Shown: positions 35,178 through 50,387 of the stretch, piece after piece
Numbering within the stretch: position 1 is the first letter of the stretch
How the letters are laid out: every line of letters starts with the position of its first letter
Assembly (NCBI GenBank): GCA_022844405.1
Contig: JALHLV010000016.1
Location: 1 to 64,000 of the forward strand
Origin: Sphingomonadales bacterium
GTDB lineage: Bacteria; Pseudomonadota; Alphaproteobacteria; SMXS01
Direction: 5' to 3'
Length of the DNA stretch: 64,000 nt
The notes under the pieces: model-generated
The model's input: the letters and a program-made list of their open reading frames with translations, nothing else
Told to the model about the DNA's origin: nothing
Database searches by the model: none
Made by a program: the position numbers and the translations under genes

Positions 35178-35429
35178 ATGGCACTCAGTATCAAGACCGA
35201 AACCGCCGACCGGCTGGCGCGAGAACTCGCGCAGCTGACGGGCGAGACGATGACGGAAGCGGTTACCAAGGCGCTCGCCCAGCGGCTGGAGCTGGAACGC
35301 AAGGCGCGCCAGGCGGACCCTGAGGAAGTGCAGCGGCTGCTCGATCACGCTGCGCGGATGCGGGTAAATTATGACTGCAGCCCGGTGACCAAGGAGGAAT
35401 GGGACGAGGGTTGGGGCGATTGCGCATGA
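35178..35429 (+). CDS. vapB: VapB-type antitoxin (type II toxin-antitoxin)
   Basis: An 83-residue antitoxin of the Rv0623/PSK-like VapB family: MALSIKTETADRLARELAQL, then TGETMTEAVTKALAQRLELE. The N-terminal ribbon-helix-helix binds the operator and the acidic C-terminus (EEWDEGWGDCA) would neutralise VapC. AAAGGG precedes the ATG. The stop overlaps the toxin start as ATGA. Confidence 0.9.
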   Translation: MALSIKTETADRLARELAQLTGETMTEAVTKALAQRLELERKARQADPEEVQRLLDHAARMRVNYDCSPVTKEEWDEGWGDCA

Positions 35430-36665: not shown

Positions 36666-37817
36666 TTACAGCACCTTCTCGTACATCCTGTAGGTCTTGT
36701 AGTGCCGGCACAGGATCATCTCCAGAATCCGCTGCATCGGCACGTTGCTCTCCAGGATCCATGACAGCTCGGCGCGGCGGTAGCCGACCTCCTTGACTGT
36801 CGCCTTGCGGATTTCCTCGATCATCAGCAGCGCCATCGAGGCGCCGGCGAGCGTGCCCTGGAACTGCTGGCGCACGCCCATCAGCGGCACGCGGCAGCGG
36901 GTGGGCGACTTGACCAGCAGGCGCCACGCCAGCCTGGCCCAGCCGAGCGGCAGCATGTTGCCGTCCAGGTCGGCGGCGGCCTGGTTGATGTCGGGCACGG
37001 TCAGCATGAAGGCGGCGGGCACGCCGTCCCATTCGGCGATCATGCAGCCCTGTTCCTTGATGAACGGCTTCAGGTCCTTGCCCATCTTGTCGATCTCGGC
37101 GTCGGTCATGGGGATGAAGCCCCAGTTGTCGCGCCAGGCGTCGTTGAAGATGTCGATGATGATCTTCAGCTCGTTCGCGAAGTCCTTCTTGCGCATCCGG
37201 CGAAGCGTCAGCTTGTCCTGCTTGCGCGCCTTATCGAGGATGCGCTGCACGTTCGCGGGGAACTCGTGGGTGATGTTCAGGTCGTAGGCCCACATGTCCT
37301 GGACCTTGGCATAGCCCAGCTCTTCGACATGCTCGCCGTAATAGGGGCGGGCATGGCCCATCATCACCCTTGGCGGCTCGTCGAAGCCTTCGACCAGCAG
37401 GCCGGATTCCTCGTTGATCGACAGGCTGAACGGCCCTAGCACACAGGTCATGCCGCGCGCGCGCAGCCAGCTTTCGGCGGCCTCGAACAGGGCGTCGAAC
37501 ACCAGCGGGTCGTCGACCGCGTCGAGGAAGCCGAAATGGCCGGTGCCCGGCCTCTGATGCACCTGGGCGAGCTGGTCGACCTGGGCGCTGATCCGGCCGA
37601 CGGGTCTGCCGTCCATGCGGGCGACGAAATAGGCGGCCTCGGCGTGCTGGAAGTAGGGATTCTTGTCCCTGTCCAGAACGTCGCGCCGCTCGAAGCGCAG
37701 CGGCGGCACCCAGTAGGGATCGCCCCCGTAGATCACCCAGGGAACATTGATGAAGGTTTCAAGGTCGGCCTTGGTGGTGACCTCGGCGACCTGAACGCCG
37801 CCCTCGCCGAAGCTCAT
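36666..37817 (-). CDS. GNAT-fold acyltransferase, probable bacterial ceramide synthase (bCerS)
   Basis: A 383-residue GNAT-superfamily protein: VQVAEVTTKADLETFINVPW, then YWVPPLRFERRDVLDRDKNP; GHARPYYGEHVEELGYAKVQ lies in the middle and RRAELSWILESNVPMQRILE at the end. In Caulobacter crescentus the ceramide synthase bCerS is a GNAT-type protein encoded with spt and cerR; length, fold and location here agree. It would N-acylate 3-oxo-sphinganine. It is last in a five-gene leftward operon (lptF, lptG, flippase, hydroxylase, this gene; 5 nt from the hydroxylase). Assignment is by synteny and family, not by alignment. Confidence 0.75.
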   Translation of the reverse strand: MSFGEGGVQVAEVTTKADLETFINVPWVIYGGDPYWVPPLRFERRDVLDRDKNPYFQHAEAAYFVARMDGRPVGRISAQVDQLAQVHQRPGTGHFGFLDAVDDPLVFDALFEAAESWLRARGMTCVLGPFSLSINEESGLLVEGFDEPPRVMMGHARPYYGEHVEELGYAKVQDMWAYDLNITHEFPANVQRILDKARKQDKLTLRRMRKKDFANELKIIIDIFNDAWRDNWGFIPMTDAEIDKMGKDLKPFIKEQGCMIAEWDGVPAAFMLTVPDINQAAADLDGNMLPLGWARLAWRLLVKSPTRCRVPLMGVRQQFQGTLAGASMALLMIEEIRKATVKEVGYRRAELSWILESNVPMQRILEMILCRHYKTYRMYEKVL

Positions 37818-37822
37818 GGAGC

Positions 37823-38584
37823 TCAGGCCGCGTCGCGTCGGCGGTCGCGCGGCGTGCCCTTGGCCACGCCGCCCGACAGTTCCGCCACCCACGGATAGCG
37901 CGCCGCCATGGCGTCGTCGTAGCCCAAGTTGAACACGGTGGCGCTCTTGGGCGGCCGCCGCTCGTTGGTGTAGAGCGTGGCGAACACCCGGTCCCACAGG
38001 AAGTTGGTGATGCCGAAATTGCCCTGCTCGTTGTGGAAATGATGCGCCATGTGCAGCTGCTTCATGCGCACCAGGATCGGGTTCTTCGGCTTGTAGGACA
38101 GATGCTCGATGCAGTGGCAGAACTCGTAGAAGCAGGTGATGACGCAGCCGGTCGCCAGGCCGAACGCGGCACCTGGCCAGCCCGCGAAGTAGTAGCCCAC
38201 CGGCATGGTGACGATCGCCACCGTCGGCAGCGTGGTGTAGAGCGCCCCGAACAGGATGTGCAGGTCGTGCGGGTCCTGGTGGTGATCGTAATGGATGCGC
38301 TTCCACACCGGCGCGGTCAGTGGCGTCTTCGCCAGCCAGTTGCCGTGCAGGATGAAGCGGTGAATGCCGTACCAGGCGAGCGGATAGATCAGGATCGCGG
38401 CCAGACCGGTCCAGGCAAGCCCGGCCAGCGGCGCGCCCGCCGTCAGCGACCAGGCGTAGCCGGCGATGGCGACGACGATATAGGCCTGGATGGCGTAGTA
38501 CTGGAAATAGGCCTTCACCAACTCCCTCAGCGTCATCTTGTCGAGGTGATGACGCCGCCGACTCCAGAAACCGAGCTTGATCAC
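37823..38584 (-). CDS. Fatty acid hydroxylase/sterol desaturase family membrane protein
   Basis: A membrane-bound di-iron hydroxylase of about 253 residues (GTG at 38584; GTG at 38623 is possible). The His clusters HRFILH, HYDHH, HCIEH and HMAHHFH give the eight or more histidines of the superfamily, set among four hydrophobic segments. Relatives include sphingolipid C4-hydroxylase (SUR2) and fatty-acyl alpha-hydroxylase. Located between the flippase and bCerS genes, it most likely hydroxylates the ceramide long-chain base or N-acyl chain (inference). Confidence 0.85.
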   Translation of the reverse strand: MIKLGFWSRRRHHLDKMTLRELVKAYFQYYAIQAYIVVAIAGYAWSLTAGAPLAGLAWTGLAAILIYPLAWYGIHRFILHGNWLAKTPLTAPVWKRIHYDHHQDPHDLHILFGALYTTLPTVAIVTMPVGYYFAGWPGAAFGLATGCVITCFYEFCHCIEHLSYKPKNPILVRMKQLHMAHHFHNEQGNFGITNFLWDRVFATLYTNERRPPKSATVFNLGYDDAMAARYPWVAELSGGVAKGTPRDRRRDAA

Positions 38585-38688
38585 GATAGGTATCGTCCCA
38601 GATAGCCTGTCCGCTGCCCGCACTATAGCACGGACGGGCGGAAAATAGTCTCACCGGCGGCAATATCCAACCCGAAACACCGGAAGGC

Positions 38689-40260
38689 TCACCTGCGCAG
38701 CAGGAAGGGCAGGCGCCGGGCGAGTTTTTTCGGCACGACGAGCTCGGCGTCCTCGCGGGTGAAGCCGAACCGCACGAGAGCCAGCATGGCGACGATCAGG
38801 GTCAAGAGGCCCAGGACGAAATAGCCGGTGCGCCACATGCCCTCGGTCAGGTCGAACAGCAGCGCCATGGCCAGCGAAATGCCGGCCGACACGGCGAGGG
38901 GCCGGAACAGGCGGCGGTCATAGGGCTTGAGGCCGTATATGTAGCGTACCTGCAGGACGCCCAGCACCGCCGACACGTTGATGCCGCCCGCCGCGGCGAT
39001 GGCCGCCGCCACCATGCTGCCGCGCAGTCCGCCGCCGAAATATTCCGGATGCGGGATCAGCAGGAACGCCAGCAGCGCCGTCACGGCGACACCCGCCGCC
39101 GCATTGAGGAACGGAATCCGGTACTTGCCGATCATGGCGAGGATCGAGGTGGACGGCCCCCAGGTCACCTCGAGACTCCGGCCGATCACCAGGATCAGCA
39201 GCGCGCCGGCGCCGGCGACAAACTCCGATCCGCTCTGGCGCAGCAATTCGTGCCGGTAGCAGATGACCAGCGTCGCCAGCGGAATGAAGGCGGGCACCGA
39301 GACGCGGGTGGCGAAGGCCAGCATCTCGCGCAAATTGGCCCGGTCGTCCTTGCCGCTGTTGGCCGAGGCGAGCGGGGCGAGGACGTATTCGAAGCTCTCG
39401 CGGAACACGTTGAGCACGCTGACCAGCTTGCGCGCAGCGGCGTAGACGCCCGCAGCCTCGGCGCCGCGCGCGCCCGGCAGCATGACGTTGAGGAAGATCA
39501 CCGGCAGCCACGAATGCCACTTCTTGGCGAAGTTGGGCAGCATCATGCTCGACGAGTACGCCACCATTTCCTTGCCCAGCGCGTGGCCCAGACCGGTCCT
39601 GGCGACGAGGTGACCGAGGCCGTAATGCTTGTGCACCAGCCGGAAGGCGAAAGCCGCGGTGACCGCGAGGCCGATCAGGTGCGAGATGAACAGTCCGAGC
39701 GATACGATGCCGATCACCCAGAACAGCACACCGAAGATCAGCCGGAAGCCCTGTTCGTAGAAAATCCGCACCTTCACCTCGGGCCCGAAGATGCTGCGGG
39801 CGCGGATCGCGCCGGTCGCGACCTCGATCATCGACCAAAGCGGCACCGCCAGCGCGTAGATCTGGATGATCGTGACCAGATGGGCCGAATCCCGCTCGTT
39901 GGCGTTGATCACGCCGGCCAGCGCCGGCGCCGCCAGGAACATGCCCAGCGCGATCAGGCACGAGAAGGTGAGGGTGGTGTTGACCGCGTATTTCAGCACC
40001 CGGCCCGCGGCCACCTCGTTCTTGGCGCCGGGAATGAAGCGCTGCAGCGCCATGGTCATGCCGAAGTCGGACAGGATGGCGAGGCCCTGCACCAGGCCCC
40101 ACATCGTCATGAACAGACCGAAGGTCTGCGAACCGTACATCTGGGTGAACAGGAAGAAGCTGAACAGCTCGATCAGCGCGCCGCTCCGGCCCAGCAGCGC
40201 GAGTCCGGCGCCGCGTGCCATCACTGCCTTGGTGGAGGGGCCTGGCGGCGCCGAGGACAT
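38689..40260 (-). CDS. Polysaccharide/lipid flippase (MOP superfamily, Wzx-like)
   Basis: A 523-residue protein with about 12-14 membrane helices. The N-terminus GAGLALLGRSGALIELFSFF, then LFTQMYGSQTFGLFMTMWGL and LSDFGMTMALQRFIP, is typical of oligosaccharide flippases. It starts 7 nt after the lptG stop and is in one operon with lptF/lptG and the ceramide-modification genes. It may flip a ceramide-linked intermediate across the inner membrane (inference); a polysaccharide role cannot be excluded. Confidence 0.82.
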   Translation of the reverse strand: MSSAPPGPSTKAVMARGAGLALLGRSGALIELFSFFLFTQMYGSQTFGLFMTMWGLVQGLAILSDFGMTMALQRFIPGAKNEVAAGRVLKYAVNTTLTFSCLIALGMFLAAPALAGVINANERDSAHLVTIIQIYALAVPLWSMIEVATGAIRARSIFGPEVKVRIFYEQGFRLIFGVLFWVIGIVSLGLFISHLIGLAVTAAFAFRLVHKHYGLGHLVARTGLGHALGKEMVAYSSSMMLPNFAKKWHSWLPVIFLNVMLPGARGAEAAGVYAAARKLVSVLNVFRESFEYVLAPLASANSGKDDRANLREMLAFATRVSVPAFIPLATLVICYRHELLRQSGSEFVAGAGALLILVIGRSLEVTWGPSTSILAMIGKYRIPFLNAAAGVAVTALLAFLLIPHPEYFGGGLRGSMVAAAIAAAGGINVSAVLGVLQVRYIYGLKPYDRRLFRPLAVSAGISLAMALLFDLTEGMWRTGYFVLGLLTLIVAMLALVRFGFTREDAELVVPKKLARRLPFLLRR

Positions 40261-40267
40261 GGAAGCG

Positions 40268-41371
40268 CTATGCCTCCGTGTAGAACAATACGGAGGTTCC
40301 GAGGAAGAAGAACAGGAACAGCGGCGTCCAGGCCGCCAGCACCGGCGGGACGGTGCCGAACTGGCCGACGGCGAGCAGCAGATTATCGACCACGAAATAG
40401 CTGAAGCCGAACGCCATGCCGCCGATCACCCGCAGGAACATGGTGCCCGACCGCTGGACGCCGAACGCCGCCATGGCGCCCAGCAGCGGCATCAGGATAG
40501 TGCCGAGCGGCCCGGAAACCTTGTGGTGCAGCCAGGCGGTCAGCTTGCTGACGCTCATGCCTTCGCCCTTGAGCTGGCCGACGGCGTTCGCCAGCCGGCC
40601 GATCGGCACGGTTTCGGGGTCGATGGACAGCGCACGGAAGCGGGCCGGCGGGATTTTCGTGTCCCAGGTCATGCGCGGCGTCGCGGTGACCTTCATCTCG
40701 TCGACGTTGAACCGGGTCACGTCGAACATGGTCCACTGACCGTTGGAATAGGCGGCGAAGTTGGCCGAAGTGATGTGCTTGATCCGGCCGCCGCCGTCCA
40801 GCTTGTACAGCGTCACCTTGTCGAGGATGGTGCCGTCGCGGGCCACCGCCTGCGCCCGCACGCGGGTGTCGCCCTCGATCGCCCAGGCGTCGGACTTGGA
40901 CGGTGGCAACGTCACGTCGCCGACGGCGAAGCCGCTGGCGCGCCAGCGCCCGTACTCGTCGTTGGATTGGGCGACGATGGTCTCGTTCATGGCGAAGTGG
41001 AACACCGCCGCGACGGCGCATACGCCCATCATCGGAAAGATGATCTTGAACGACGACACGCCGCTCGACTGCATTACCGCGATTTCGCTGCTCTGCGCGA
41101 GCGTGGTGCAGGTGATCAGCGTGGCGAGCAGCGCCGAGAAGCCGATGACGTTGGACACCATCTGTGGGAAGCGCAGCACCGTGAAGCGCCAGATCGAGTC
41201 CATGCCCGCGCCGGCCGGCTCCAGGATGTCGCCGCTTTCCGACAGCACGTCGAGGGCCTGCATGATGATGGCGATGCCGAACAGCAGCACCAGGAAGCGC
41301 ACCAGGAACATCTTGGCGATGTATTCCAGAAGGACGGGGATCGACGAGCTGTGTTGCTGCAGTCTGGTCAT
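40268..41371 (-). CDS. lptG: LptG-family lipid export permease
   Basis: A 367-residue LptF/LptG permease: an N-terminal membrane pair, a periplasmic jellyroll domain (TLYKLDGGGRIKHITSANFA) and a C-terminal membrane set ending FFLGTSVLFYTEA. The ATG at 41371 overlaps the lptF stop (ATGA). Canonical lptF-lptG in proteobacteria pump LPS with LptBC; here the pair has no lptD neighbour but sits in a ceramide cluster, so it may be a dedicated paralog. Confidence 0.85.
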   Translation of the reverse strand: MTRLQQHSSSIPVLLEYIAKMFLVRFLVLLFGIAIIMQALDVLSESGDILEPAGAGMDSIWRFTVLRFPQMVSNVIGFSALLATLITCTTLAQSSEIAVMQSSGVSSFKIIFPMMGVCAVAAVFHFAMNETIVAQSNDEYGRWRASGFAVGDVTLPPSKSDAWAIEGDTRVRAQAVARDGTILDKVTLYKLDGGGRIKHITSANFAAYSNGQWTMFDVTRFNVDEMKVTATPRMTWDTKIPPARFRALSIDPETVPIGRLANAVGQLKGEGMSVSKLTAWLHHKVSGPLGTILMPLLGAMAAFGVQRSGTMFLRVIGGMAFGFSYFVVDNLLLAVGQFGTVPPVLAAWTPLFLFFFLGTSVLFYTEA

Positions 41372-42582
41372 GCCGGCTGGCCCTCAGCCCCATCCTTCTT
41401 GGGCCGGAAGAAGCTGATCTTCTGCACCGAGCCGATCAGCGTGTCCCAGCCGTTCTCGATCCAGGCCAGCGGCCTTATGCCGACCCGGAACGCCGTCGTA
41501 TAGAAGAAGAATCCGGACAATCCCACGAACACCACGAAAGGCATGAACAGGCCGACGAGCCCCGAGCTTTCGCCCAGGCTGGCCGCCGCGGTGCCGAACT
41601 CCAGCGTCTTGTGCAAGGTCAGCAGCAGGATGACGCCGACGACCAGGCCGAGCTGCTTCTGCTGCCGCTTGGCGCCCACGCCCAGGCCCACCGCCATGAA
41701 CGGCAGGATCAGGATGGTCAGCGAGCGCAGGATGCGGTCGAAGAACGCCGACATGTAGGTGCGCGCCTCACGCGGGTTGCTCGCGCTGTGCGACTGCGAC
41801 CACAGCTCGGGCAGGGTCAGTTCGCGCTCCTTGTTGCCGCGGGCGCGGAAGGCGGCGATCTGCGGCATCTCGAACGGATAGTCGTGCTGGGTGAAGGTGA
41901 ACACCCGCGGCGCCGGCTTGCGCGGCTCGACATCGACGATCACGCCCTCGCGCAGCCGCATCAGCACGGTGCGGCCGTCGGGCGTGGCGAGGAACGAGCC
42001 TTCCCGTGCGGTGATCGTCGAGACGTGGCCATCCGGGCGTTCCTTCTGGGCGAAGATGCCCTCGAGGCGCTGGCCGCCATCATGGGCCTTCTCGATCCGC
42101 AGGGTGAAACCGTCGCCCAGATAGCTGTACTCGCCGGGCCGGATGCTGGTGCCGAAGGCGCCCGACGTCAGGTCGAACAGCAGGCTCTGGTAGGTATAGA
42201 ACGCGCGCGGCTGGATGAAGCCCAGCAGCGCCAGGTTGATGATCATCAGCACGCCGGACAGCGCGATGGGCCCGCGCATCAGCCGGAACAGGCCAAGGCC
42301 GCCGGCCTGCAGCGCCTCGAGTTCGCTGTTGTTGGTCAGCTTGCGGAAGGCAAGCAGCACGCCGAGCAGGAAGCCCAGCGGCAAGGCGAGGCCGATATAC
42401 TGCGGAATCAGGTTGCCCAGCATCCTGAACACCACGCCGACCGGGCCGCCCTGGTTGGCCACCAGGTCGAACAGGCGCAACATTTTTTCCAGCAGCAGCA
42501 GCATGGCCGACACGCCGACGGTCATCAGCAGCGGCGTCATCACCTGGCGCAGGATGTAGATGTCGACCTTTCTGAACACGGT
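41368..42582 (-). CDS. lptF: LptF-family lipid export permease
   Basis: A 404-residue permease of the LptF type, GTG start at 42582 (VFRKVDIYILRQVMTPLLMT) with AAAGGA upstream. Transmembrane segments flank a beta-jellyroll domain (SYLGDGFTLRIEKAHDGGQR). It pairs with LptG by a 4-nt overlap. It is first of a five-gene leftward operon; the 208-nt gap to the divergent DUF2141 gene holds the promoters of both directions. Confidence 0.85.
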   Translation of the reverse strand, partial: TVFRKVDIYILRQVMTPLLMTVGVSAMLLLLEKMLRLFDLVANQGGPVGVVFRMLGNLIPQYIGLALPLGFLLGVLLAFRKLTNNSELEALQAGGLGLFRLMRGPIALSGVLMIINLALLGFIQPRAFYTYQSLLFDLTSGAFGTSIRPGEYSYLGDGFTLRIEKAHDGGQRLEGIFAQKERPDGHVSTITAREGSFLATPDGRTVLMRLREGVIVDVEPRKPAPRVFTFTQHDYPFEMPQIAAFRARGNKERELTLPELWSQSHSASNPREARTYMSAFFDRILRSLTILILPFMAVGLGVGAKRQQKQLGLVVGVILLLTLHKTLEFGTAAASLGESSGLVGLFMPFVVFVGLSGFFFYTTAFRVGIRPLAWIENGWDTLIGSVQKISFFRPKKDGAEGQPA

Positions 42583-42790
42583 CGGGCAGTCCTTTCGGCG
42601 GATGCGCATGGATCGACCGACGCGGCGCCATGCGATCACGCGGCAGCGGTTTCAAGTAAAGAGTGCCCCCCGTTGATTGCAAACGAATTCTGTAGCGAAC
42701 AATTCCCGCGCCCGGCCGTTCGGCCTAGGTTCATCCTCGCGCCTTAGGATGACGCGCGCTATGACCATGCATGCAGCAGGGAGACGAGAC

Positions 42791-43366
42791 TTGGCATCAA
42801 CGTCGCGACGGCACCGCTGGTTCACCGCCGTGGCGGCGACATGTGCCGTTCTGGCGGCCGGCACCGCCCGCGCCGGCGACGAGCAGCGCGTCCCCGTCCC
42901 CGAGCGCCTTCAGGGCCTGCAGCTTTCGGGCAAGGCGCTGGACGCGGTCGCCGGGCGGATCGATCCGTCCAAGCCGCTCGGCTGGTGCGATCCGGCGGAT
43001 ACCGGGCCGCGCATCCGGGTGATCGTGCCCAATGTGCGCAATGCCGAGGGCAACATCAGGCTCAGTCTGCACGGTCCCGACCCCGAGCAGTGGGTGGGCA
43101 AGAAGGGCGGCAAGCTGATCCGCTTCGACGTGCCTGCCCGACAGGGCCGCATGGAAATCTGCATGCCGCTGCCCTATGGCAAGCGCGTCTACGCCGTCGG
43201 CCTGTATCACGACGAGAACGCCAACGGGAAATACGGCTTCGCCGGCGAGGGCTACGGCTTCTCCAACGACGCCAGGGCCGGCGCGTTCGGCCCGGCCTCG
43301 CACAAGGCCGCGGCGTTCACCGCGGGCGACGCGACCACGGAGCTGACGATCAGCCTCCGCTATTGA
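42791..43366 (+). CDS. Exported DUF2141 domain protein (candidate CpgA-like)
   Basis: A 191-residue exported protein. The TTG at 42791 is supported by AGGGAG six to ten bases upstream and gives a clean signal peptide (RHRWFTAVAATCAVLAAGTA). The mature part has the DUF2141 signature (RVYAVGLYHDENANGKYGFA, then GEGYGFSNDARAG). It begins the rightward unit with the lipid kinase and the Tam41-like protein. In Caulobacter three genes beside the ceramide genes (cpgA, cpgB, cpgC) are needed for ceramide phosphoglycerate; the first-position match to cpgA is inferred from order only. Confidence 0.78.
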   Translation: MASTSRRHRWFTAVAATCAVLAAGTARAGDEQRVPVPERLQGLQLSGKALDAVAGRIDPSKPLGWCDPADTGPRIRVIVPNVRNAEGNIRLSLHGPDPEQWVGKKGGKLIRFDVPARQGRMEICMPLPYGKRVYAVGLYHDENANGKYGFAGEGYGFSNDARAGAFGPASHKAAAFTAGDATTELTISLRY

Positions 43367-43446
43367 GCATTCCGTCGCTTGTCGTTTGACCCGGAACCAA
43401 TTGCTGCCTAAGTTCGCGCCTTTCCAGCCACTTGGAACAGGTTCCG

Positions 43447-44415
43447 GTGACACTCGAAGAAATCGGCGTCATCAGCAATCCGGGCAGTACCCGGATGAAC
43501 AAGATGTTGCAGGAGTTCCGGCAGGTGGTCGCGGGTTATGCCGGCGTCGCCTACCGAGAGCTTTCCCATATCGACGACATGGAGCACATCCTGCGCGACT
43601 TTGCGGCGCAGGGAGTCAAGTTGCTCATTCTGAGCGGCGGCGACGGTACTCTGCAGCTCGGCGTCACCGCGCTGATGAACCACGACATCTTTCCTGACCC
43701 GCCAGTGATCGCCATCCTGCCCGGCGGCCGCACCAACATGGTGGCCGAGGCGCTCGGCATGTACGGTACGCCCAGTGAGTGCCTGCGCGACGTGATCGAC
43801 GGCGCGTTGAACGGCAGGCTCAAGACCGTCGACCTGCCGTTCATCCGGCTGCAGGTGAAACCGGACGCGGCCCCGGTGTATGGCGCGTTCTTCGGCGCCG
43901 CGACCATCGTCCGCGGCATCGAGTTCACCCGCAACGTGATCTATCCGCTGGGCATGCCCAATTTCCTGTCGCATGCCATCGCCATCGTTTACCTGGTCGC
44001 CAACGCGGCGTGGCCGTTCAAGGGGGCGAACGCGCCCATGCGGGCCGAACCCATGCACGTGAATTTCGGCGACAGCCCGCCGGAGGCGAAAGCCTACATG
44101 ATCGTGCTGGTGACCACGCTCAACCGGCTGATCCTGGGCCTGTCGTCGGCCTCGGCGGTGGGCGAGGGTGCGCTGCGCTACACCAGCATCGAATACACCG
44201 TCCCGGCCGCGGCGCGCGCCGCCTGGACATTTCTGTTCGGCCGTCCGTCGGCCAAACCGGTGCGCGGTCTGGTCCGCCGCCGCCTGCACGGCGTCGAGAT
44301 TCGCACCACCAGCCCGGTGACGCTCGACGGCGAGTTCTTCGTGCCCGATCCCGCCCATCCGGTGACGCTGGAGGCGACTCCGCCCTTCACCTTCGTCAGG
44401 CTGAAAGACGAATGA
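43447..44415 (+). CDS. Lipid kinase (diacylglycerol/ceramide kinase catalytic domain), CpgB-like
   Basis: A 322-residue protein of the DAGK_cat family. The GTG at 43447 follows GGAACAGG. Nucleotide-binding motifs are VISNPGSTRMNKM near the N-terminus and the glycine-rich GGDGT at residues 64-68 (LILSGGDGTLQL). Caulobacter CpgB, a ceramide kinase, belongs to this family and lies beside spt; here the gene also lies next to the serine palmitoyltransferase cluster. It probably makes ceramide 1-phosphate from ceramide and ATP. Its stop overlaps the next start (ATGA). Confidence 0.82.
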   Translation: MTLEEIGVISNPGSTRMNKMLQEFRQVVAGYAGVAYRELSHIDDMEHILRDFAAQGVKLLILSGGDGTLQLGVTALMNHDIFPDPPVIAILPGGRTNMVAEALGMYGTPSECLRDVIDGALNGRLKTVDLPFIRLQVKPDAAPVYGAFFGAATIVRGIEFTRNVIYPLGMPNFLSHAIAIVYLVANAAWPFKGANAPMRAEPMHVNFGDSPPEAKAYMIVLVTTLNRLILGLSSASAVGEGALRYTSIEYTVPAAARAAWTFLFGRPSAKPVRGLVRRRLHGVEIRTTSPVTLDGEFFVPDPAHPVTLEATPPFTFVRLKDE

Positions 44416-45368
44416 CCGGCGAGGGCGAGGATTTCCGGACAGTCATGGACCGGGTCCTGGTCGAACTGTACCAGCCGCTCTTTCCCGCCGCCGAGGCCGC
44501 CACGAAGGATCTGCTCGCCGCCCATCCCGGCGCGTCGGCGATCCTGTTCTACGGCTCGTGCCTGCGCACGGGCTCGGACGACGACAAGATCCTGGATTTC
44601 TATGTGTTGGCCGACGACCTCGCCGAAGCGAACGGCAGCGCGCTGCTGGGTTTCTTCAACCGCGTCCTGCCGCCCAACGTGTTCTACCGGGAGACGCCGT
44701 TCGACGGCCGCATGGTGCGCATCAAATACGCGCTGATGTCGACCGACGGTTTCGTCGAGTCCATGAGCCTGGATTGCCTCAACCCCAGCTTCTGGGCCCG
44801 CTTCGCCCAGCCCTGCGCGCTGGCCTGGGTGCGCGACCCGCGCACCGCCGGCTATGTGGCCGAAGCCGTTGCCCAAGCGGTGATCACGGCGGTCTCGGTG
44901 GTGGTGCCGGTCCATCCGTCGCCGTTCACGCCCGACGAGCTTTGGTCGCATGTGTTCCAGATGACCTATGGAGCCGAGCTCCGATCAGAGAATGCGGCCA
45001 CCAAGGGCGGCGAGATCTTCCGCGACTATCCCGACCGTTACCGCGACCTGGCGGTCCCGGCCATGCGGGCAGGCGGCATCCAGGTGGAGGTGGACGAGCA
45101 CGGATATTTGCGGACCACCGTGCCGCCGTCGCGCGGCCGGCAGGAGATGCGCCGGTGGCGCACAAGGCGGTTGCAGGGCAAGACGCTCAGCCTGCTGCGG
45201 CTGATCAAGGGCGCCTTCACCTTCACCGGTGGGCTCGACTACCTGGCGTGGAAGATGCGCCGCCATTCCGGCGTGGAAATCCCGATCAAGCCGTGGCACC
45301 GGCGCCATCCGATCATCGGCGGCCTGGTGCTGCTCCGGAAGGCGCGGCGCAAGGGTGGGTTCCGCTAG
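44412..45368 (+). CDS. Tam41/Mmp37-like CTP:lipid-phosphate cytidylyltransferase (CpgC-like)
   Basis: A 318-residue nucleotidyltransferase. The motif SAILFYGSCLRTG is followed by DDKILDFYVLADD (YGS at 47-49; D62 is a likely metal ligand). FDGRMVRIKYALMSTDGFVE, then DCLNPSFWARFAQP, matches the DGRxIKYGVxS and FWARFxQP-like regions of mitochondrial Tam41, which makes CDP-diacylglycerol. The translational overlap with the lipid kinase suggests it converts ceramide phosphate, or phosphatidate, to a CDP-activated lipid (inference). Its stop overlaps the spt stop by 4 nt. Confidence 0.75.
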   Translation: MTGEGEDFRTVMDRVLVELYQPLFPAAEAATKDLLAAHPGASAILFYGSCLRTGSDDDKILDFYVLADDLAEANGSALLGFFNRVLPPNVFYRETPFDGRMVRIKYALMSTDGFVESMSLDCLNPSFWARFAQPCALAWVRDPRTAGYVAEAVAQAVITAVSVVVPVHPSPFTPDELWSHVFQMTYGAELRSENAATKGGEIFRDYPDRYRDLAVPAMRAGGIQVEVDEHGYLRTTVPPSRGRQEMRRWRTRRLQGKTLSLLRLIKGAFTFTGGLDYLAWKMRRHSGVEIPIKPWHRRHPIIGGLVLLRKARRKGGFR

Positions 45369-46570
45369 GCCGCCGGCTGGCTGAGCACACTGTTCGACCG
45401 CGCCAGGCGCTCGAACGTATCCACGATCGTCTTGACCTGTTCCTCGGTATGGGCGGCGCTGAGGCTGCAGCGCAGCAGGTTCAGGCCCTGCGGCGTGGCC
45501 GGCGGCATGGCCAGGTTGACGTAGACGCCGTTGTTCAGCAGCTGCTCCCAAAGCCGCACCGCCATGTCGCGGTCGTCGATCTTCACGGCGACCACCGGGC
45601 TGGGCGCCGCGCCCAGGTTGAAGCCGGCGCGGGTGAGGCCTTCGTGGAGCTGCCGGGCGTTGCGCCACAGCTTCTCGCGGTGCTGCGGCTCGGAGCCCAG
45701 GATCTCGATCGCCTTCAGCGCCGAGGCGACCACCGACGGCGGCAGCGAGGCGGTGAACATGTAGGGGCGCGCGGCAAGGCGCAGGATCTCGAACTTGGGA
45801 TGGTTCGACACGCAATAGCCGCCGATGGTGCCGACGCTCTTGCTGAAGGTGCCGACGACGAACTCGACGTCGTGCATGACGCCGGCTTCCTGCACCACGC
45901 CGCAGCCGGTCTCGCCGAACACGCCGAGGGAGTGGGCTTCGTCCACCATCAGGGACGCGCCGTGCCGGTTCTTGACCTCGACCAGTTCCTTCATGGGCGC
46001 CTTGTCGCCCAGCATGGAATAGAGGCCCTCGATGACGATCAGCACGTTGGCGCCGGTGCCCAGGCGGCGCAGCCGTTTGTCCAGGTCGTCGGCGTCGTTG
46101 TGCTTGAAGCGGACGATGGTGGCGTCGGACATCTTGCAGGCGTCGTAGATGCTGGCGTGGCTGTCGGCGTCGATGACGATGACGTCGTCCTTGCCGGCGA
46201 TGGTGCCGATGCTCGCCATGTTGGCGAGGAAGCCGGTGCTGAACACCATGCAGTGCTGCGCGCCGTAGAGGTTCGCGATGGCGGCTTCCAACGCCTTGTG
46301 GCCGGTATAGGTGCCGTTCAGCACCCGCGAGCCCGTCGTGCCCGTGCCGGCCGCGTCGAGCGCCTCGTGCGCCGCCTGGATGCAGCGCGGGTCGAAGGTC
46401 AGGCCCAGATAGTTGTTGGTGCCGGCCAGGATCGTCCGCTTGCCCTTGATCACCGCCTCGGTGGGCGAGATGATCTGCTCCATGACGACGTCGATGGGGC
46501 TGGTGTCCTCGAAACCCAGCGCCTCGCGAGCCCGGATCATCGGGTCGAATTTGTCGAACAGGTCAGCCAT
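45365..46570 (-). CDS. spt: Serine palmitoyltransferase
   Basis: A 401-residue alpha-oxoamine synthase that condenses serine with a fatty acyl thioester to 3-oxo-sphinganine. PLP lysine K244 lies in GTFSKSVGT; D210 and H213 (MVDEAHSLGVFG) and the stacking His H138 (DADSHASIYDACK) are present. TGTTGSRVLNGTYTGHKALE is typical of the family. KBL and BioF share the fold, but the adjacent ACP, acyl-AMP ligase and epimerase genes match the Caulobacter spt locus. It overlaps the ACP gene by 8 nt. Confidence 0.92.
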   Translation of the reverse strand: MADLFDKFDPMIRAREALGFEDTSPIDVVMEQIISPTEAVIKGKRTILAGTNNYLGLTFDPRCIQAAHEALDAAGTGTTGSRVLNGTYTGHKALEAAIANLYGAQHCMVFSTGFLANMASIGTIAGKDDVIVIDADSHASIYDACKMSDATIVRFKHNDADDLDKRLRRLGTGANVLIVIEGLYSMLGDKAPMKELVEVKNRHGASLMVDEAHSLGVFGETGCGVVQEAGVMHDVEFVVGTFSKSVGTIGGYCVSNHPKFEILRLAARPYMFTASLPPSVVASALKAIEILGSEPQHREKLWRNARQLHEGLTRAGFNLGAAPSPVVAVKIDDRDMAVRLWEQLLNNGVYVNLAMPPATPQGLNLLRCSLSAAHTEEQVKTIVDTFERLARSNSVLSQPAA

Positions 46571-46808
46571 TCTTCTTCTCGATCAGGGTGTTGACCGCGT
46601 CGGCGACCTGGCCGACGGTCTCCAGGTCAGGCAGCAGGTTGAGCGGGATGATGATGTCGAAGTGGTCTTCCATCTCGGCGACGAAGTCCATCACGGTCAG
46701 CGAATCCCACTCCAGATCGGTGGCAAAAGTGCTCGACGGCGTTACCGCCACACCCTTGCGATTGAGGGGCGCGATCAGGGTGACGATCTCGTCCAGCGCG
46801 TTGCTCAT
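46563..46808 (-). CDS. Acyl carrier protein of the sphingolipid pathway
   Basis: An 81-residue ACP. S36 in DLEWDSLTVMDF is the 4'-phosphopantetheine site; the helix VAEMEDHFDIIIPLNLLPDL is typical. It is a dedicated ACP carrying the acyl group for Spt, loaded by the fatty acyl-AMP ligase two genes upstream. The start MSNALDEIV at 46808 follows AAGG. It overlaps spt by 8 nt. Confidence 0.9.
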   Translation of the reverse strand: MSNALDEIVTLIAPLNRKGVAVTPSSTFATDLEWDSLTVMDFVAEMEDHFDIIIPLNLLPDLETVGQVADAVNTLIEKKNG

Positions 46809-46886
46809 GAAGGGTCGGCCTGCCTGCAATTGTCCGGAGCGCGGGTTATAGCACTGGCCCGGATGAAGCCCAACCCGCGAATAGGC

Positions 46887-47819
46887 TCAGGGCAGGTCGC
46901 CATGGGCCTCATACCAGGCGCGGGTCTCGGCGAGGCCGCGCGACGCCGGAATCGATGCCCGCCAGCCGGCCTCGGCAAGGGTGGGGTCGCGGCAGACCCA
47001 GTCCGGATGGGCGAGCTCGCGCGCTTTTCCCGGCGTCAGCATCGGTACGCCGCCGGTGGCCAGGCTGGCCAGCCAGACGGCGCCGCCCGCCGCCCGCAGC
47101 AGGCCGCCCGGCACGAAGACCGGCCGAGGCTGGCCGGGGCCGCCGCCGATCATGCCCAGCACCTCGGCGAAGCTGTAGCCGTCGGCCGCCCCGTCATGGA
47201 CCTCGGCGGTCCGGCCCGAAAGGCCGGGCAGGGCGATGGCGGCGACGATGGCGGCGGCCAGGTCCGCCACATGCACCAGCGAAGTGCGATGACGCGGGCC
47301 GCCGGGCAGGAACGGGCGGCGGCGGCGCGCGGCCTTGAAGAACACCAGCGTTTCCCGGTCGCCGGGACCGTAGACCGCCGGCGGGCGCAGGATGGTCCAG
47401 TCGAGGCCCGGCGATGCCTGTACCAGCACTTCCGCCGCGGCCTTGCTGGCCGCGTAGCCGGACAGGGCAGGTTCCCGGGCGGCGAGGGACGACAGGTGGA
47501 TGAAACGCGCCTTGCGTCCGCCCAGCGCGGCGATCAACCGCGCGGTGCCGCCCTTGTTGACGGCGAAGAACTCGGCCCGGCGCCGCGCCTTGATCAGCCC
47601 GGCCACATGGATGACGGCGTCCGCGCCGGCGACCAACGTGCCAAGGGCCGGTTCGTCGGTCAGGCCGCCGGAAACCCAGGTGACACCGTCACGGGCCGGC
47701 TGCGCGCGGCGGGTCAGCGCGGAAACCAGAAAGCCCTGCTTCAGAAGTTCGTCCAGCACCGCGGCGCCGACGAAACCCGTCGGCCCGGTCAGCGCGACGC
47801 GTCTGGCGGGTCCGGTCAT
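46887..47819 (-). CDS. cerR: NAD-dependent epimerase-type reductase (CerR-like)
   Basis: A 310-residue extended SDR with the Rossmann motif TGPTGFVG (residues 11-18) and catalytic Y122-x3-K126 (YAASKAA). The motif PAVYGPGDRETLVFFKAARR follows. In Caulobacter, CerR reduces the 3-oxo group after N-acylation. It lies 4 nt downstream of the acyl-AMP ligase and 78 nt upstream of the ACP gene. Confidence 0.85.
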   Translation of the reverse strand: MTGPARRVALTGPTGFVGAAVLDELLKQGFLVSALTRRAQPARDGVTWVSGGLTDEPALGTLVAGADAVIHVAGLIKARRRAEFFAVNKGGTARLIAALGGRKARFIHLSSLAAREPALSGYAASKAAAEVLVQASPGLDWTILRPPAVYGPGDRETLVFFKAARRRRPFLPGGPRHRTSLVHVADLAAAIVAAIALPGLSGRTAEVHDGAADGYSFAEVLGMIGGGPGQPRPVFVPGGLLRAAGGAVWLASLATGGVPMLTPGKARELAHPDWVCRDPTLAEAGWRASIPASRGLAETRAWYEAHGDLP

Positions 47820-47823
47820 GGGG

Positions 47824-49605
47824 TCACTCCCCAGCGGCGGCCTTCAGCGGCGCGGCGTCTTCCCAGGGATAGGGATCGCTCCCTTCGAGCGGCTCCAGCA
47901 GGCCGGACATGAAGTTGGCGCGCGCCTTTACCCGGCTCAGCTTGCCCGAGGAGGTGCGTGGCAGGCTGCGCGGCTTCACCAGCGCCACGCGGCAGGCGAT
48001 GCCCACGTCCTTCTGCACCCGCCGCTTGATCTCGTCGACCAGCTTGCGACGCTCCTCCAGCTCGCTGACGCGCGGCTGGACCAGGATCATGGCCACTTCC
48101 TCGTTGCCCCGTCCCGGCACCGAGATGGCGGCGCTGTCGCCCGAGCGCAGACCGTCGATCTGCTCGACGGTCCATTCGATGTCCTGCGGCCAGTGGTTGC
48201 GGCCGTTCAGGATGATCAGATCCTTGGCGCGTCCGACGATGTAGAGCGCCGGGCCGATCATGTAGCCCATGTCGCCGGTGTCGAGCCAGCCTTCGCCGTC
48301 CAGCACGTTGCGGGTGCCTTCCGGGTCGTTGAAATAGCCCGACATCACCGACGGGCCGCGCACATAGATCTTGCCGACGCTGCGCTCGCCCACCGTGTCG
48401 CCGTTCTCGTCACGGATATCGAGGTCGTATTCCGGCATGGGGATGCCGCAATTGACCACTTCCCGGGTCTTGGCGGTGTCGGCGGTCGCCGGCACGGCCC
48501 GGTGCTCCGCCGCCAGCAAGCTCTCGTCGACGAGATCGACCTCGATGCCGCTGTCGATGGGCATGAAGCTCACCGCCAGCGTGCATTCGGCCAGCCCGTA
48601 GCTGGACAGGAACGCCTTGTCGTTGAACCCGGCGGACGCGAAGGTGCGGCTGAACTCGCGCATGGAATCGGCGCGGATCATCTCGGCGCCCAGGCCGGCG
48701 ACGCGCCAGGAACTCAGGTCCAGCTCGGCGACCTGTTCGGGCTTGGCCCGGCGGGCGCACAGCTCGTAGCCGAAGGTCGGGCTGTAGCTGATCGTCGCCC
48801 TGTTGCGGCTGATCAGCTCCAGCCACAACAGCGGGCGCCGGGCGAAGAACTCGGTCGGCAGATAGTCGGCGGTGACCTGCACCGCGACCAGGGTCAGCAT
48901 GGCGCCGACCAGGCCCATGTCATGGTAGAAGGGCAGCCACGACATCATCCGGTCGCCATCGCGCACCTCGATGCCGTGCACGCCGTTGCCGTGGCAGTTT
49001 GACATCACCGACGTCTGGGTCACCGCGACGCCGTGCGGGAAGCGGGTGCTGCCCGAGGAGTATTGCAGGTAGCAGATGTCGCCGGGACCCTGCGGCCGCA
49101 GATCCGGAGCGCCTTCAGGCAGCGCCAGCAATTCCTCCGCGGTCACCACCAGCTTCATGCCCAGCCCGTCGGCGGCCTGTACCAGCAGGTCCGACATGCC
49201 GGTGGGCGCGATGGCGGCGGCGGCGTGGCAGCTCGCCATCTGCTTGCCGAGTTGCTCGACGTAGCCGTCCTTGCCGCCGAACGAGGTCGGCAGCGGCAGC
49301 GGCACCGGCAGCAGGCCGGCGTACTGGCAGCCGAAGAAGGCGGTGATGAAGTCCGGGGTCGTGTCGGCGATCAGCGCCACGCGGCAGCCGCGTTCCAGGC
49401 CGGCGGTGATCAGCCGGCGCGCCGTGGCCAGCGCGCGGTCGCGCAGGTCGCTGAAGCTCAGGACGTCGACCAGTTCGCCGCGCGCCGAATAGAAGTTGAA
49501 CCCCCGGGCGCCCTGCGCTGCATAGTCCAGCGCGTCGACCAAAGTGGCGAAGTCGGCCATGCGCCGGGGCAGGCCGGGATCATCCGTCGGTAAAGGTGTC
49601 AGCAT
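47824..49605 (-). CDS. Fatty acyl-AMP/ACP ligase (FAAL family)
   Basis: A 593-residue ANL enzyme of the FAAL subgroup. The P-loop is QYSSGSTRFPHGV (residues 181-193) without the usual TSGTTGxPKG; LPFYHDMGLVG and SSYGLAECTLAVSF are typical of FAALs, as is the insertion SFGGKDGYVEQL. The C-terminal Lys is in PRTSSGKLSRVKAR. It activates a fatty acid to acyl-AMP and passes it to the dedicated ACP. It heads the leftward unit FAAL-cerR-acp-spt. Confidence 0.88.
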   Translation of the reverse strand: MLTPLPTDDPGLPRRMADFATLVDALDYAAQGARGFNFYSARGELVDVLSFSDLRDRALATARRLITAGLERGCRVALIADTTPDFITAFFGCQYAGLLPVPLPLPTSFGGKDGYVEQLGKQMASCHAAAAIAPTGMSDLLVQAADGLGMKLVVTAEELLALPEGAPDLRPQGPGDICYLQYSSGSTRFPHGVAVTQTSVMSNCHGNGVHGIEVRDGDRMMSWLPFYHDMGLVGAMLTLVAVQVTADYLPTEFFARRPLLWLELISRNRATISYSPTFGYELCARRAKPEQVAELDLSSWRVAGLGAEMIRADSMREFSRTFASAGFNDKAFLSSYGLAECTLAVSFMPIDSGIEVDLVDESLLAAEHRAVPATADTAKTREVVNCGIPMPEYDLDIRDENGDTVGERSVGKIYVRGPSVMSGYFNDPEGTRNVLDGEGWLDTGDMGYMIGPALYIVGRAKDLIILNGRNHWPQDIEWTVEQIDGLRSGDSAAISVPGRGNEEVAMILVQPRVSELEERRKLVDEIKRRVQKDVGIACRVALVKPRSLPRTSSGKLSRVKARANFMSGLLEPLEGSDPYPWEDAAPLKAAAGE

Positions 49606-49751: not shown

Positions 49752-50387
49752 TTGCCATACTCGGTGCCCGCAAGGGCGAGGGCGCCGGTTCATAAGGGGA
49801 AACCGCTGGAAAGGCAAGAGTCCAGGAAGCAGGCCCACCCTGCGCCAGGCGACAATAGCCGCCGCGTGCCGCGCCGGTACGCCAGCGAAGCCTACCTGGA
49901 GCGCGCCGCCGCATATTATCTGGCGCGCTTTGCCTCGAGCGTCGGCAACTTCAAGGATGTGCTGTGGCGCAAGGTCGAGCGCCGCGGCCTGGCGGATGGT
50001 GTCGAGCGCGCCACGGCGCAGCAATGGATCGACGGCATCACCGACCGGTTCGTCGCCCTCGGCCTGCTCGACGACGACGCCTTCGCGCGGGTGCGCGCCG
50101 GCGCGCTGCTGCGGCGCGGCAAGCCGCGGCGGGTGATCCGGTCGGCGCTGGTGGCCAAAGGCGTGACCGCGGATGTCGCGGCCGGCGCGGTCGCGGCGTT
50201 GTCGGCCGACTCCGAGGATCCGGACCTCGACGCGGCGCTCGCCTTTGCCCGTCGCAAGCGGCTCGGCCCCTACGGCGCTGCCGGCACGGGCGACGACCGG
50301 CGCCGCAAGGACCTGGCCGCCTTTGCCCGGGCAGGATTCTCCTATCAGCTCGCACGCCGCGTGCTCGAGGGGAGTGGCGGCGAATGA
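49752..50387 (+). CDS. recX: Regulatory protein RecX
   Basis: A RecX-family protein (up to 211 residues) that modulates RecA filament stability. Family repeats: RYASEAYLERAAAYYLARFA, NFKDVLWRKVERRG, LGLLDDDAFARVRAGALLRR and RVIRSALVAKGV. The start is uncertain: TTG at 49752 gives the longest frame; in-frame GTGs at 49764 and 49866 or a CTG at 49806 (after AAGGGG) are alternatives. No recA is nearby. The stop overlaps the DUF192 start (ATGA). Confidence 0.82.
   Translation: MPYSVPARARAPVHKGKPLERQESRKQAHPAPGDNSRRVPRRYASEAYLERAAAYYLARFASSVGNFKDVLWRKVERRGLADGVERATAQQWIDGITDRFVALGLLDDDAFARVRAGALLRRGKPRRVIRSALVAKGVTADVAAGAVAALSADSEDPDLDAALAFARRKRLGPYGAAGTGDDRRRKDLAAFARAGFSYQLARRVLEGSGGE

What the first reader, a model, noticed from the sequence alone, without database searches (positions are those of the whole stretch)
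36666..49605. Complete ceramide/anionic sphingolipid island with modification and export genes
Seen: FAAL, cerR-like reductase, ACP and spt in one leftward unit; lipid kinase and Tam41-like genes in a rightward unit; lptF, lptG, flippase, hydroxylase and GNAT acyltransferase in a second leftward unit. Known: in Caulobacter crescentus spt, acp, acyl-ACP ligase, cerR and a GNAT-type bCerS make ceramide, and CpgA-C make ceramide phosphoglycerate. Inferred: this organism makes, modifies and exports an anionic sphingolipid, possibly as partial substitute for LPS.
Basis: partly seen in the sequence, partly recalled or inferred. Interest (0 to 1): 0.8.

Follow-up and report, generated by a model that had tools for sequence, protein, structure and literature searches.

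The report
Sphingolipid island in lipid A-free bacterium
This stretch carries a set of genes for making, phosphorylating and exporting a sphingolipid, in a bacterium whose genome seems to lack key genes for lipopolysaccharide, so the sphingolipid probably takes that molecule's place on the cell surface.

Summary
SPT fits serine palmitoyltransferase, not KBL/BioF. The Tam41-like protein has the Tam41 fold (Z 19.1); the acyltransferase a tandem-GNAT fold. The same 12-gene order recurs in 10 of 80 related loci and resembles the published Caulobacter ceramide-phosphoglycerate cluster, without relatives of its CPG2 genes anywhere in the window.

What was missed lies outside the window. LpxC is missing from the window's genome and 9 family relatives; LpxB and KdtA from all 8 of these tested; LptD is kept. 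Of 16 LpxC-less SPT genomes, 13 have exactly one LptF/LptG pair, 1 a contig-edge fragment, and 2 (the window's included) an extra accessory pair. The 13 of these in the tree carry no canonical LPS-type pair; the 2 LpxC-bearing SPT genomes examined (of 9) have both kinds. So "partial substitute for LPS" is too weak: the genes predict full replacement, with the Lpt bridge carrying sphingolipid. No lipid was measured.

The parts
36666..37817 (-). GNAT-type acyltransferase, candidate bacterial ceramide synthase (bCerS/CerS)
   Evidence: Acetyltransf_1 below cut-off; no NCBIfam match; model pLDDT 90.3 with tandem-GNAT fold, best 7q3a E 1.4e-14; in 53 of 80 related loci
37823..38623 (-). fatty acid hydroxylase-family membrane enzyme, candidate ceramide hydroxylase
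   Evidence: PF04116 5e-20; His motifs HYDHH and HMAHH
38689..40260 (-). Polysacc_synt-family flippase, candidate sphingolipid flippase
   Evidence: PF01943 4.8e-11; in 23 of 80 related loci
40268..41371 (-). LptG-type permease grouping with sphingolipid-cluster pairs (LptG2)
   Evidence: TIGR04408 283 bits, cut-off 240; tree
41368..42639 (-). LptF-type permease grouping with sphingolipid-cluster pairs (LptF2)
   Evidence: TIGR04407 213.8 bits, below the cut-off of 230; tree
42677..43366 (+). DUF2141 protein, signal-peptide-like N terminus by eye, divergent from lptF; role unknown
   Evidence: PF09912 4e-16; in 31 of 80 related loci
43432..44415 (+). lipid kinase, candidate ceramide kinase (CpgB kind)
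   Evidence: DAGK_cat 2e-15; GGDG at residue 69; in 74 of 80 related loci
44412..45368 (+). Tam41-like nucleotidyltransferase, candidate CDP-ceramide synthase (position and annotation of CpgC/CC_1161)
   Evidence: Model pLDDT 93.4; Tam41 7ecd Z 19.1 (rmsd 3.1, 229 aligned), 6ig4 Z 16.5, next unrelated row 7.7; PF09139 in 13 of 42 family members, not in the window protein itself
45365..46570 (-). serine palmitoyltransferase
   Evidence: NF047599 626 bits over cut-off 500; 508 bits to 2x8u; TFSKSVG around residue 243
46563..46829 (-). acyl carrier protein for SPT (first ATG at about 46808)
   Evidence: PF00550 2e-9; WDSL motif
46887..47819 (-). CerR-like atypical SDR, candidate 3-oxo-sphingolipid reductase
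   Evidence: PF01370 7e-25; 9g83_P E 1.5e-14
47824..49605 (-). fatty acyl-AMP/acyl-ACP ligase
   Evidence: NF006624 830 bits over cut-off 600

Best explanation
The island makes ceramide and exports it in phosphorylated form to the outer membrane of an alphaproteobacterium that has lost lipid A. FAAL loads a fatty acid on the dedicated ACP; SPT condenses it with serine; the GNAT-type synthase N-acylates the product; CerR reduces it; the hydroxylase adds a hydroxyl. The kinase makes ceramide-1-phosphate and the Tam41-like enzyme activates it with CTP to CDP-ceramide, to which a head group (glycerate or another) is added. The flippase and LptF2/LptG2, with the rest of the Lpt bridge ending in LptD, carry the lipid to the outer leaflet in the place of LPS. 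Shown: gene families, synteny, Tam41 fold, absence of LpxC/LpxB/KdtA matches, presence of LptD, and which kind of LptFG survives. Inferred: substrates, order of steps, head group, transport direction.
For: Gene families and folds. Identical order in 10 of 80 loci. SPT in all 10 family members: 8, G039 and G167. LpxC missing in 10 of 10 family genomes (two of them only 78 and 84 % complete); LpxB in 8 of 8; KdtA in 8 of 8, and in 20 of 20 LpxC-less genomes against 0 of 6 LpxC-bearing ones. LptD present in 13 of 13 tested. LptFG: of 16 LpxC-less SPT genomes 13 have exactly one pair, 1 a contig-edge fragment, 2 an extra accessory pair; the 2 LpxC-bearing SPT genomes examined have two pairs each. 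In the tree the window pair falls with sphingolipid-cluster pairs; the pairs of LPS-bearing genomes outside such clusters form their own group, 100/100 on the LptF and on the LptG side. Among 190 class genomes 16 of 25 with SPT lack LpxC against 18 of 165 without (p 2.4e-8).
Against: No lipid has been measured. 9 of 25 SPT genomes keep LpxC, so sphingolipid does not enforce loss of lipid A. 18 of 165 genomes without SPT lack LpxC too; of the 10 whose size is printed, 8 are 1.7 Mb or less, one is 2.5 and one 5.9 Mb. Fisher tests ignore ancestry; a rough count by family still gives p 8e-5, but the number of independent losses is unknown. The window genome is a 41-contig draft. LptA, LptB, LptC, LptE and the other lipid A genes were not tested. 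The step that attaches a head group to CDP-ceramide has no gene in the cluster. LptG scores over the LPS-export equivalog cut-off, so that model alone would call it an LPS transporter. The tree tool warned of a possible long-branch join.
Confidence: 0.72

Rival explanations
1. Caulobacter-like case: the organism makes LPS and the anionic sphingolipid is only an auxiliary outer-membrane lipid.
For: Caulobacter has both (abstract of PMC10331486; start of the abstract of PMC12275187); 9 of 25 SPT-bearing class genomes keep LpxC.
Against: LpxC, LpxB and KdtA have no match in the window genome and in all 8 family genomes tested for the three; its two LptFG pairs both lie outside the canonical group of the tree.
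Confidence: 0.07
2. The ceramide is made as described, but LptF2G2 of the cluster moves something else, or only helps, and the sphingolipid reaches the outer membrane by another route (AsmA- or Mla-like proteins).
For: No transport experiment was found in print: PMC11324152 says the route is not known and did not test LptC2F2G2; PMC11087976 had identified no transporter.
Against: The LptFG pair that remains in genomes without LpxC lies beside SPT or the kinase/Tam41-like genes, or (G194) beside the ceramide synthase, hydroxylase and flippase genes, and groups with the LptFG of sphingolipid clusters.
Confidence: 0.15
3. The head group is not phosphoglycerate: kinase and Tam41-like enzyme yield CDP-ceramide that receives another alcohol, or ceramide phosphate is itself the end product. 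(This concerns the product only and is compatible with the best explanation.)
For: No CC_1159/1158/1153/1152 relative in the window; the published CpgC step has no known mechanism (PMC12275187, passages).
Against: In Caulobacter the kinase and CpgC are the genes known to be required for CPG, the others for CPG2, though PMC11324152 thinks a further unknown enzyme may be needed. The rest of the window genome was not searched for these genes.
Confidence: 0.4

Closest known systems
Caulobacter crescentus phosphosphingolipid cluster CC_1168-CC_1152 (PMC11324152)
   Same: Five ceramide genes, ceramide kinase, a CC_1161-type protein, second LptF and LptG, flippase (by family and published gene list, not by alignment)
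   Different: Window has a hydroxylase in the cluster and no CC_1159, CC_1158, CC_1153, CC_1152 relatives; no LptC2 seen among the ORFs scanned; Caulobacter has LpxC and KdtA (controls), this genome has no match to LpxC, LpxB or KdtA
Sphingosinicella and Kordiimonas clusters (L071, L091, L052, L101)
   Same: Identical order and strands of all 12 genes
   Different: 32-60 % protein identity, gene by gene; LpxC not tested in these four genomes
LPS-lacking Sphingomonas with glycosphingolipid (passages in PMC11087976, whole text of PMC10964400, start of abstract of PMC11165598)
   Same: Natural absence of LPS with sphingolipid in its place
   Different: Glycosylated there; here kinase and Tam41-like genes predict a phosphate-linked lipid. 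The window's family differs in the tool's labels from that of G012, which groups with Sphingomonas in the LptFG tree; its name is unknown
Tam41, mitochondrial CDP-diacylglycerol synthase
   Same: Fold (7ecd Z 19.1, rmsd 3.1, 229 residues)
   Different: 14 % identity; substrate presumed to be ceramide-1-phosphate
Lpt-like system of LPS-lacking Borrelia burgdorferi (PMC10353723, start of abstract in search listing only)
   Same: Lpt-type bridge in a diderm without LPS
   Different: No sphingolipid genes are mentioned in the part seen

Membership tests
Phosphosphingolipid (CPG) cluster of the Caulobacter kind | Five ceramide genes (FAAL/aasR, cerR, acp, spt, cerS) | tested here: met
   by family and fold, direct alignment with the Caulobacter proteins not made
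Phosphosphingolipid (CPG) cluster of the Caulobacter kind | Ceramide kinase (CpgB) and CC_1161/CpgC-type protein | tested here: met
   DAGK_cat with GGDG; Tam41 fold; by family and fold, not by alignment with CpgB/CpgC
Phosphosphingolipid (CPG) cluster of the Caulobacter kind | CPG2 genes CC_1159, CC_1158, CC_1153, CC_1152 in the cluster | tested here: not met
   tblastn of 23 candidate relatives of the four from other loci: no real match in the whole window. One query, a read-through ORF from L123, matched inside the GNAT gene (2.9e-15) and is taken as an artefact. Rest of the genome not searched
Phosphosphingolipid (CPG) cluster of the Caulobacter kind | LptF2/LptG2 distinct from the canonical pair | tested here: met
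Phosphosphingolipid (CPG) cluster of the Caulobacter kind | LptC2 | not tested
   No LptC match among the ORFs scanned with Pfam; the genome was not searched
Serine palmitoyltransferase | Over curated cut-off and nearer to SPT than to KBL/BioF | tested here: met
Tam41 (CDP-lipid synthase) | Tam41 fold | tested here: met
Tam41 (CDP-lipid synthase) | PF09139 match of the protein itself | tested here: not met
   Window protein no match; 13 of 42 family members match, best 2.2e-9
Tam41 (CDP-lipid synthase) | CTP-dependent activity on a phospholipid or ceramide phosphate | not testable with these tools
   -
Bacterial ceramide synthase (GNAT type) | GNAT fold, linked to spt | tested here: met
   alignment with the Caulobacter enzyme not made
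Canonical LPS exporter LptFG | Groups with LptFG of LPS-bearing genomes; lipid A genes present | tested here: not met
Canonical LPS exporter LptFG | Over the curated LptG and LptF equivalog cut-offs | tested here: inconclusive
   LptG 283 over 240; LptF 213.8 under 230

The most novel reading that the evidence does not exclude
In many alphaproteobacterial families lipid A has been replaced outright by anionic sphingolipid, and the LPS transport bridge has been handed over: the canonical LptFG pair is lost with lipid A, the sphingolipid-cluster pair is the one that stays, and LptD serves it. In the window genome and one family relative a further module (ACP, ketoacyl synthase, LptF, LptG, glycosyltransferase, hydroxylase, second ceramide-synthase paralogue) would be a second, separate sphingolipid export line, possibly for a glycosylated form.
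Probability: 0.5. Interest if true: 0.78.

Novelty: new variant of a known kind. Interest (0 to 1): 0.63.

Why it matters
How sphingolipids reach the outer membrane is stated as unknown in print (PMC11324152, introduction passage; PMC11087976, results passage). Lineages without lipid A genes are a natural experiment: the LptFG that the examined ones keep in common is the one of the sphingolipid cluster. That gives a direct, testable answer, a predicted step (CDP-ceramide) for the unassigned CpgC reaction, and a named strain without LpxC and KdtA in which to test it (Aquibaculum arenosum CAU 1616). It also suggests that absence of LPS is more widespread among alphaproteobacteria of normal genome size than the Sphingomonas example.

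Tried and rejected
Rejected: that SPT is KBL or BioF (508 against 228 bits to the best KBL; NCBIfam 626 against 336 for bioF). Rejected: that the window LptFG is the relocated canonical pair. Considered and dropped: absence of LptFG beside LptD as a sign of loss, because the LPS-bearing G051 shows no window-type LptFG match there either (L139). Considered and dropped: the gene upstream of FAAL as LptC2; Pfam calls it RecX. Tam41 by single sequence gave nothing useful in the PDB or Pfam; profile and fold did. Naming the window organism failed: the nearest named record, L045, is titled Candidatus Kuenenia, which does not fit. Paper searches in whose listings I saw no report of the LptFG/lipid A pattern: (open-licence PubMed Central only; several listings were capped, e.g. 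20 of 94 papers, 12 of 67; one search had no hits). Zik et al. 2022 is not held. The earlier lipid A survey (PMC3087551, passages) names Nitrosomonas and Wolbachia among exceptions; the term 'Sphingomonas' has no occurrence in it. Not tested for lack of searches: LptA, LptB, LptC, LptE, LpxA, LpxD, LpxK, CpgA and CpgD elsewhere in the genome; LptFG in 7 of the 9 SPT genomes that keep LpxC (only G175 and G123 were done); LpxB in the LpxC-less genomes other than the 8 of the family, G037, G165 and G012.
Full report
WHAT IS THERE. The window's island at 36666-49605 holds twelve genes in three units. Leftward: FAAL, CerR-like SDR, ACP, SPT. Rightward: DUF2141 protein, lipid kinase, Tam41-like protein. 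Leftward: LptF, LptG, Polysacc_synt-family flippase, fatty-acid hydroxylase, GNAT acyltransferase. Kinase/Tam41 and LptG/LptF overlap by 4 bases and SPT/ACP by 8 on the listed ORF bounds.

IDENTITY OF THE PARTS. FAAL and SPT pass curated cut-offs (NF006624 830 of 600 bits; NF047599 626 of 500). The acyltransferase has no curated family match (Acetyltransf_1 16.9 bits, cut-off 20.7; no NCBIfam match), but its model (pLDDT 90.3) is a tandem GNAT (7q3a, E 1.4e-14). A tandem GNAT fold is shared by many acetyltransferases, so the ceramide-synthase reading rests on gene linkage. The Tam41-like protein has no Pfam match of its own, but 13 of 42 family members match PF09139, the family profile finds Tam41 6ig2 at 1.2e-5, and the model (pLDDT 93.4) aligns to CTP-bound Firmicutes Tam41 7ecd with Z 19.1 (rmsd 3.1, 229 residues) and to mitochondrial Tam41 with Z 16.5; the next unrelated row is 7.7. 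This makes a CTP-dependent activation of ceramide-1-phosphate to CDP-ceramide the likeliest reaction. PMC11324152 (conclusions section) suggests an NDP-activated ceramide for CC_1161 from its InterPro domain; PMC12275187 (passages) calls the CpgC mechanism unidentified.

CONSERVATION. One scan of named genomes kept the best 80 of at least 568 loci with a relative of the Tam41-like protein. By tblastn at 1e-5 the kinase is found in 74 of these 80 stretches, LptG-like in 56, GNAT in 53, LptF-like in 53, SPT in 50, FAAL in 48, ACP and CerR in 47 each, DUF2141 in 31, hydroxylase in 30, flippase in 23; many stretches end at contig edges. In 10 of 80 all twelve genes occur, and in all 10 in the same order and strands. 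Candidate relatives of the Caulobacter CPG2 genes (CDP-alcohol phosphotransferase, metallophosphatase, two NTP transferases; assigned by Pfam and position) occur in Dongia, Aerophototrophica and Nitrospirales clusters, but not in the clusters of G039 or G167 of the window's genus nor anywhere in the 64-kb window: of 23 queries the only strong match is a read-through ORF from L123 that hits the GNAT gene.

NO LIPID A. LpxC (PF03331) has no match in the window's genome (100 % complete, 41 contigs) nor in its 9 family relatives (10 of 10 lack it; completeness 78-100 %), while 43 of 50 other class genomes in that search have it. LpxB is missing from 8 of 8 family genomes and from G037, G165 and G012, and present in the 2 LpxC-bearing genomes of that search. 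KdtA is missing from 20 of 20 LpxC-less genomes (8 of this family) and present in 6 of 6 LpxC-bearing ones. LptD is present in 13 of 13. SPT is present in all 10 family genomes (8; G039 and G167).

WHICH Lpt PERMEASES REMAIN. Of 16 LpxC-less SPT genomes examined for PF03739, 13 have exactly two matches, i.e. one LptF/LptG pair (in G195 on two contigs), G190 has one fragment at a contig end, and the window genome and G194 have four. Apart from G194, where the cluster is split over two contigs, and the LptG of G195, the pair lies within about 8 kb of the SPT or Tam41-like gene. In G194 it lies beside the GNAT, hydroxylase, flippase and DUF2141 genes (L161). The two LpxC-bearing SPT genomes examined (G175, G123) have two pairs, one in the cluster and one elsewhere; the other seven of that kind were not examined. 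The two LpxC-bearing SPT-less genomes (G001, G051) have two matches each. In a tree of 56 LptF/LptG proteins those of G001 and G051 and the 'elsewhere' pairs of G175 and G123 form their own group on both the LptF and the LptG side (100/100 each); the window pair and the other cluster pairs lie outside it. On the LptF side the cluster proteins form one group with the accessory pair (95/90); on the LptG side they fall in two groups (97/98, with the window, and 83/92) whose order relative to the canonical group is open. The tool flagged a possible long-branch join and the root is arbitrary, so I rely on the grouping, not on the direction. The 13 LpxC-less genomes in the tree carry no member of the canonical group.

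CLASS-WIDE PATTERN. In an even draw of 190 class genomes, 25 have SPT at E 1e-110 or better and 21 the Tam41-like protein; 156 have LpxC. SPT genomes: 16 of 25 lack LpxC; others: 18 of 165 (Fisher p 2.4e-8). Tam41-like genomes: 13 of 21 lack it; others 21 of 169 (p 1.6e-6). The 16 fall in 11 of the tool's families and the 9 that keep LpxC in 8 others; family f29 holds both an SPT genome without LpxC (G159) and a genome with LpxC and no SPT match (G028). A rough count by family gives p 8e-5 (it puts each of the 18 in its own family and takes 127 families without SPT). Without a species tree the number of independent losses is unknown. G159 is Aquibaculum arenosum CAU 1616 by 100 % identity over 3861 bases to L083, and G037 and G165 (f38) are nearest to Dongia, 75 and 82 % DNA identity over the aligned parts.

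ACCESSORY MODULE. The second LptFG pair of the window genome (contig 12; L126) sits in ACP - ketoacyl synthase - LptF - LptG - glycosyltransferase - hydroxylase - GNAT; the last two are paralogues of the window's (47 and 45 % identity). G194 has the same order and strands (L162); in the other six family genomes no third or fourth PF03739 match was found, though G190 and G195 are fragmented. Its LptF and LptG fall outside the canonical group. The glycosyltransferase matches general GT2 models best and Glyco_transf_21 at 5e-9. A second export line for a glycosylated sphingolipid is a guess.

HOW IT LIKELY WORKS. Steps up to ceramide and ceramide-1-phosphate follow the published Caulobacter pathway (PMC11324152, abstract and sections 8 part 1, 9 and 13; PMC10331486, abstract and section 7). 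CDP-ceramide formation, the identity of the head group, and transport by LptF2G2 to LptD are inferences. Transport by LptC2/F2/G2 was proposed but not tested in PMC11324152, which says the route is not known. The new element here is the comparative one: where lipid A is gone, the canonical LptFG is gone too and the cluster's LptFG is there. A survey (PMC3087551, passages) notes Nitrosomonas europaea with only lpxK of nine lipid A genes, and PMC11324152 reports the cluster in N. eutropha, which fits the same pattern outside the class.

LIMITS. No lipid data. Absence calls rest on profile searches of draft genomes, although three genes agree in all 8 family genomes tested for them. Kordiimonas and Sphingosinicella were not tested for LpxC. 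Caulobacter proteins were not obtained for direct alignment.

Noticed in passing
L126 (own genome contig 12, 98001-117000), 6999-14340: Accessory module ACP - ketoacyl synthase - LptF - LptG - GT2 - hydroxylase - ceramide-synthase paralogue, with the same order in G194 (L162); no such extra pair found in six other family genomes.
   Followed up: partly
42677-43366: DUF2141 protein with signal-peptide-like N terminus, divergent from lptF; in 31 of 80 related loci. It may correspond to CC_1157, which PMC11324152 calls probably unrelated (position only, not aligned). Candidate periplasmic partner of the export system.
   Followed up: partly
L057, L063, L075 (Nitrospirales); L069, L116 (Desulfobacterota): Kinase plus Tam41-like pairs with ceramide-synthase, hydroxylase or SPT relatives nearby occur well outside the alphaproteobacteria.
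   Followed up: no
L045: Closest named record is titled Candidatus Kuenenia stuttgartiensis although its gene order and identity (67-96 % in the genes compared) place it beside the window's genome; the title looks wrong.
   Followed up: no
35178-35429: Rv0623-like transcription factor (PF07704, 7e-22), the kind found as antitoxin in VapBC pairs (recalled).
   Followed up: no
49752-50387: RecX-like gene divergent from FAAL; related ORFs in 21 of 80 loci.
   Followed up: partly
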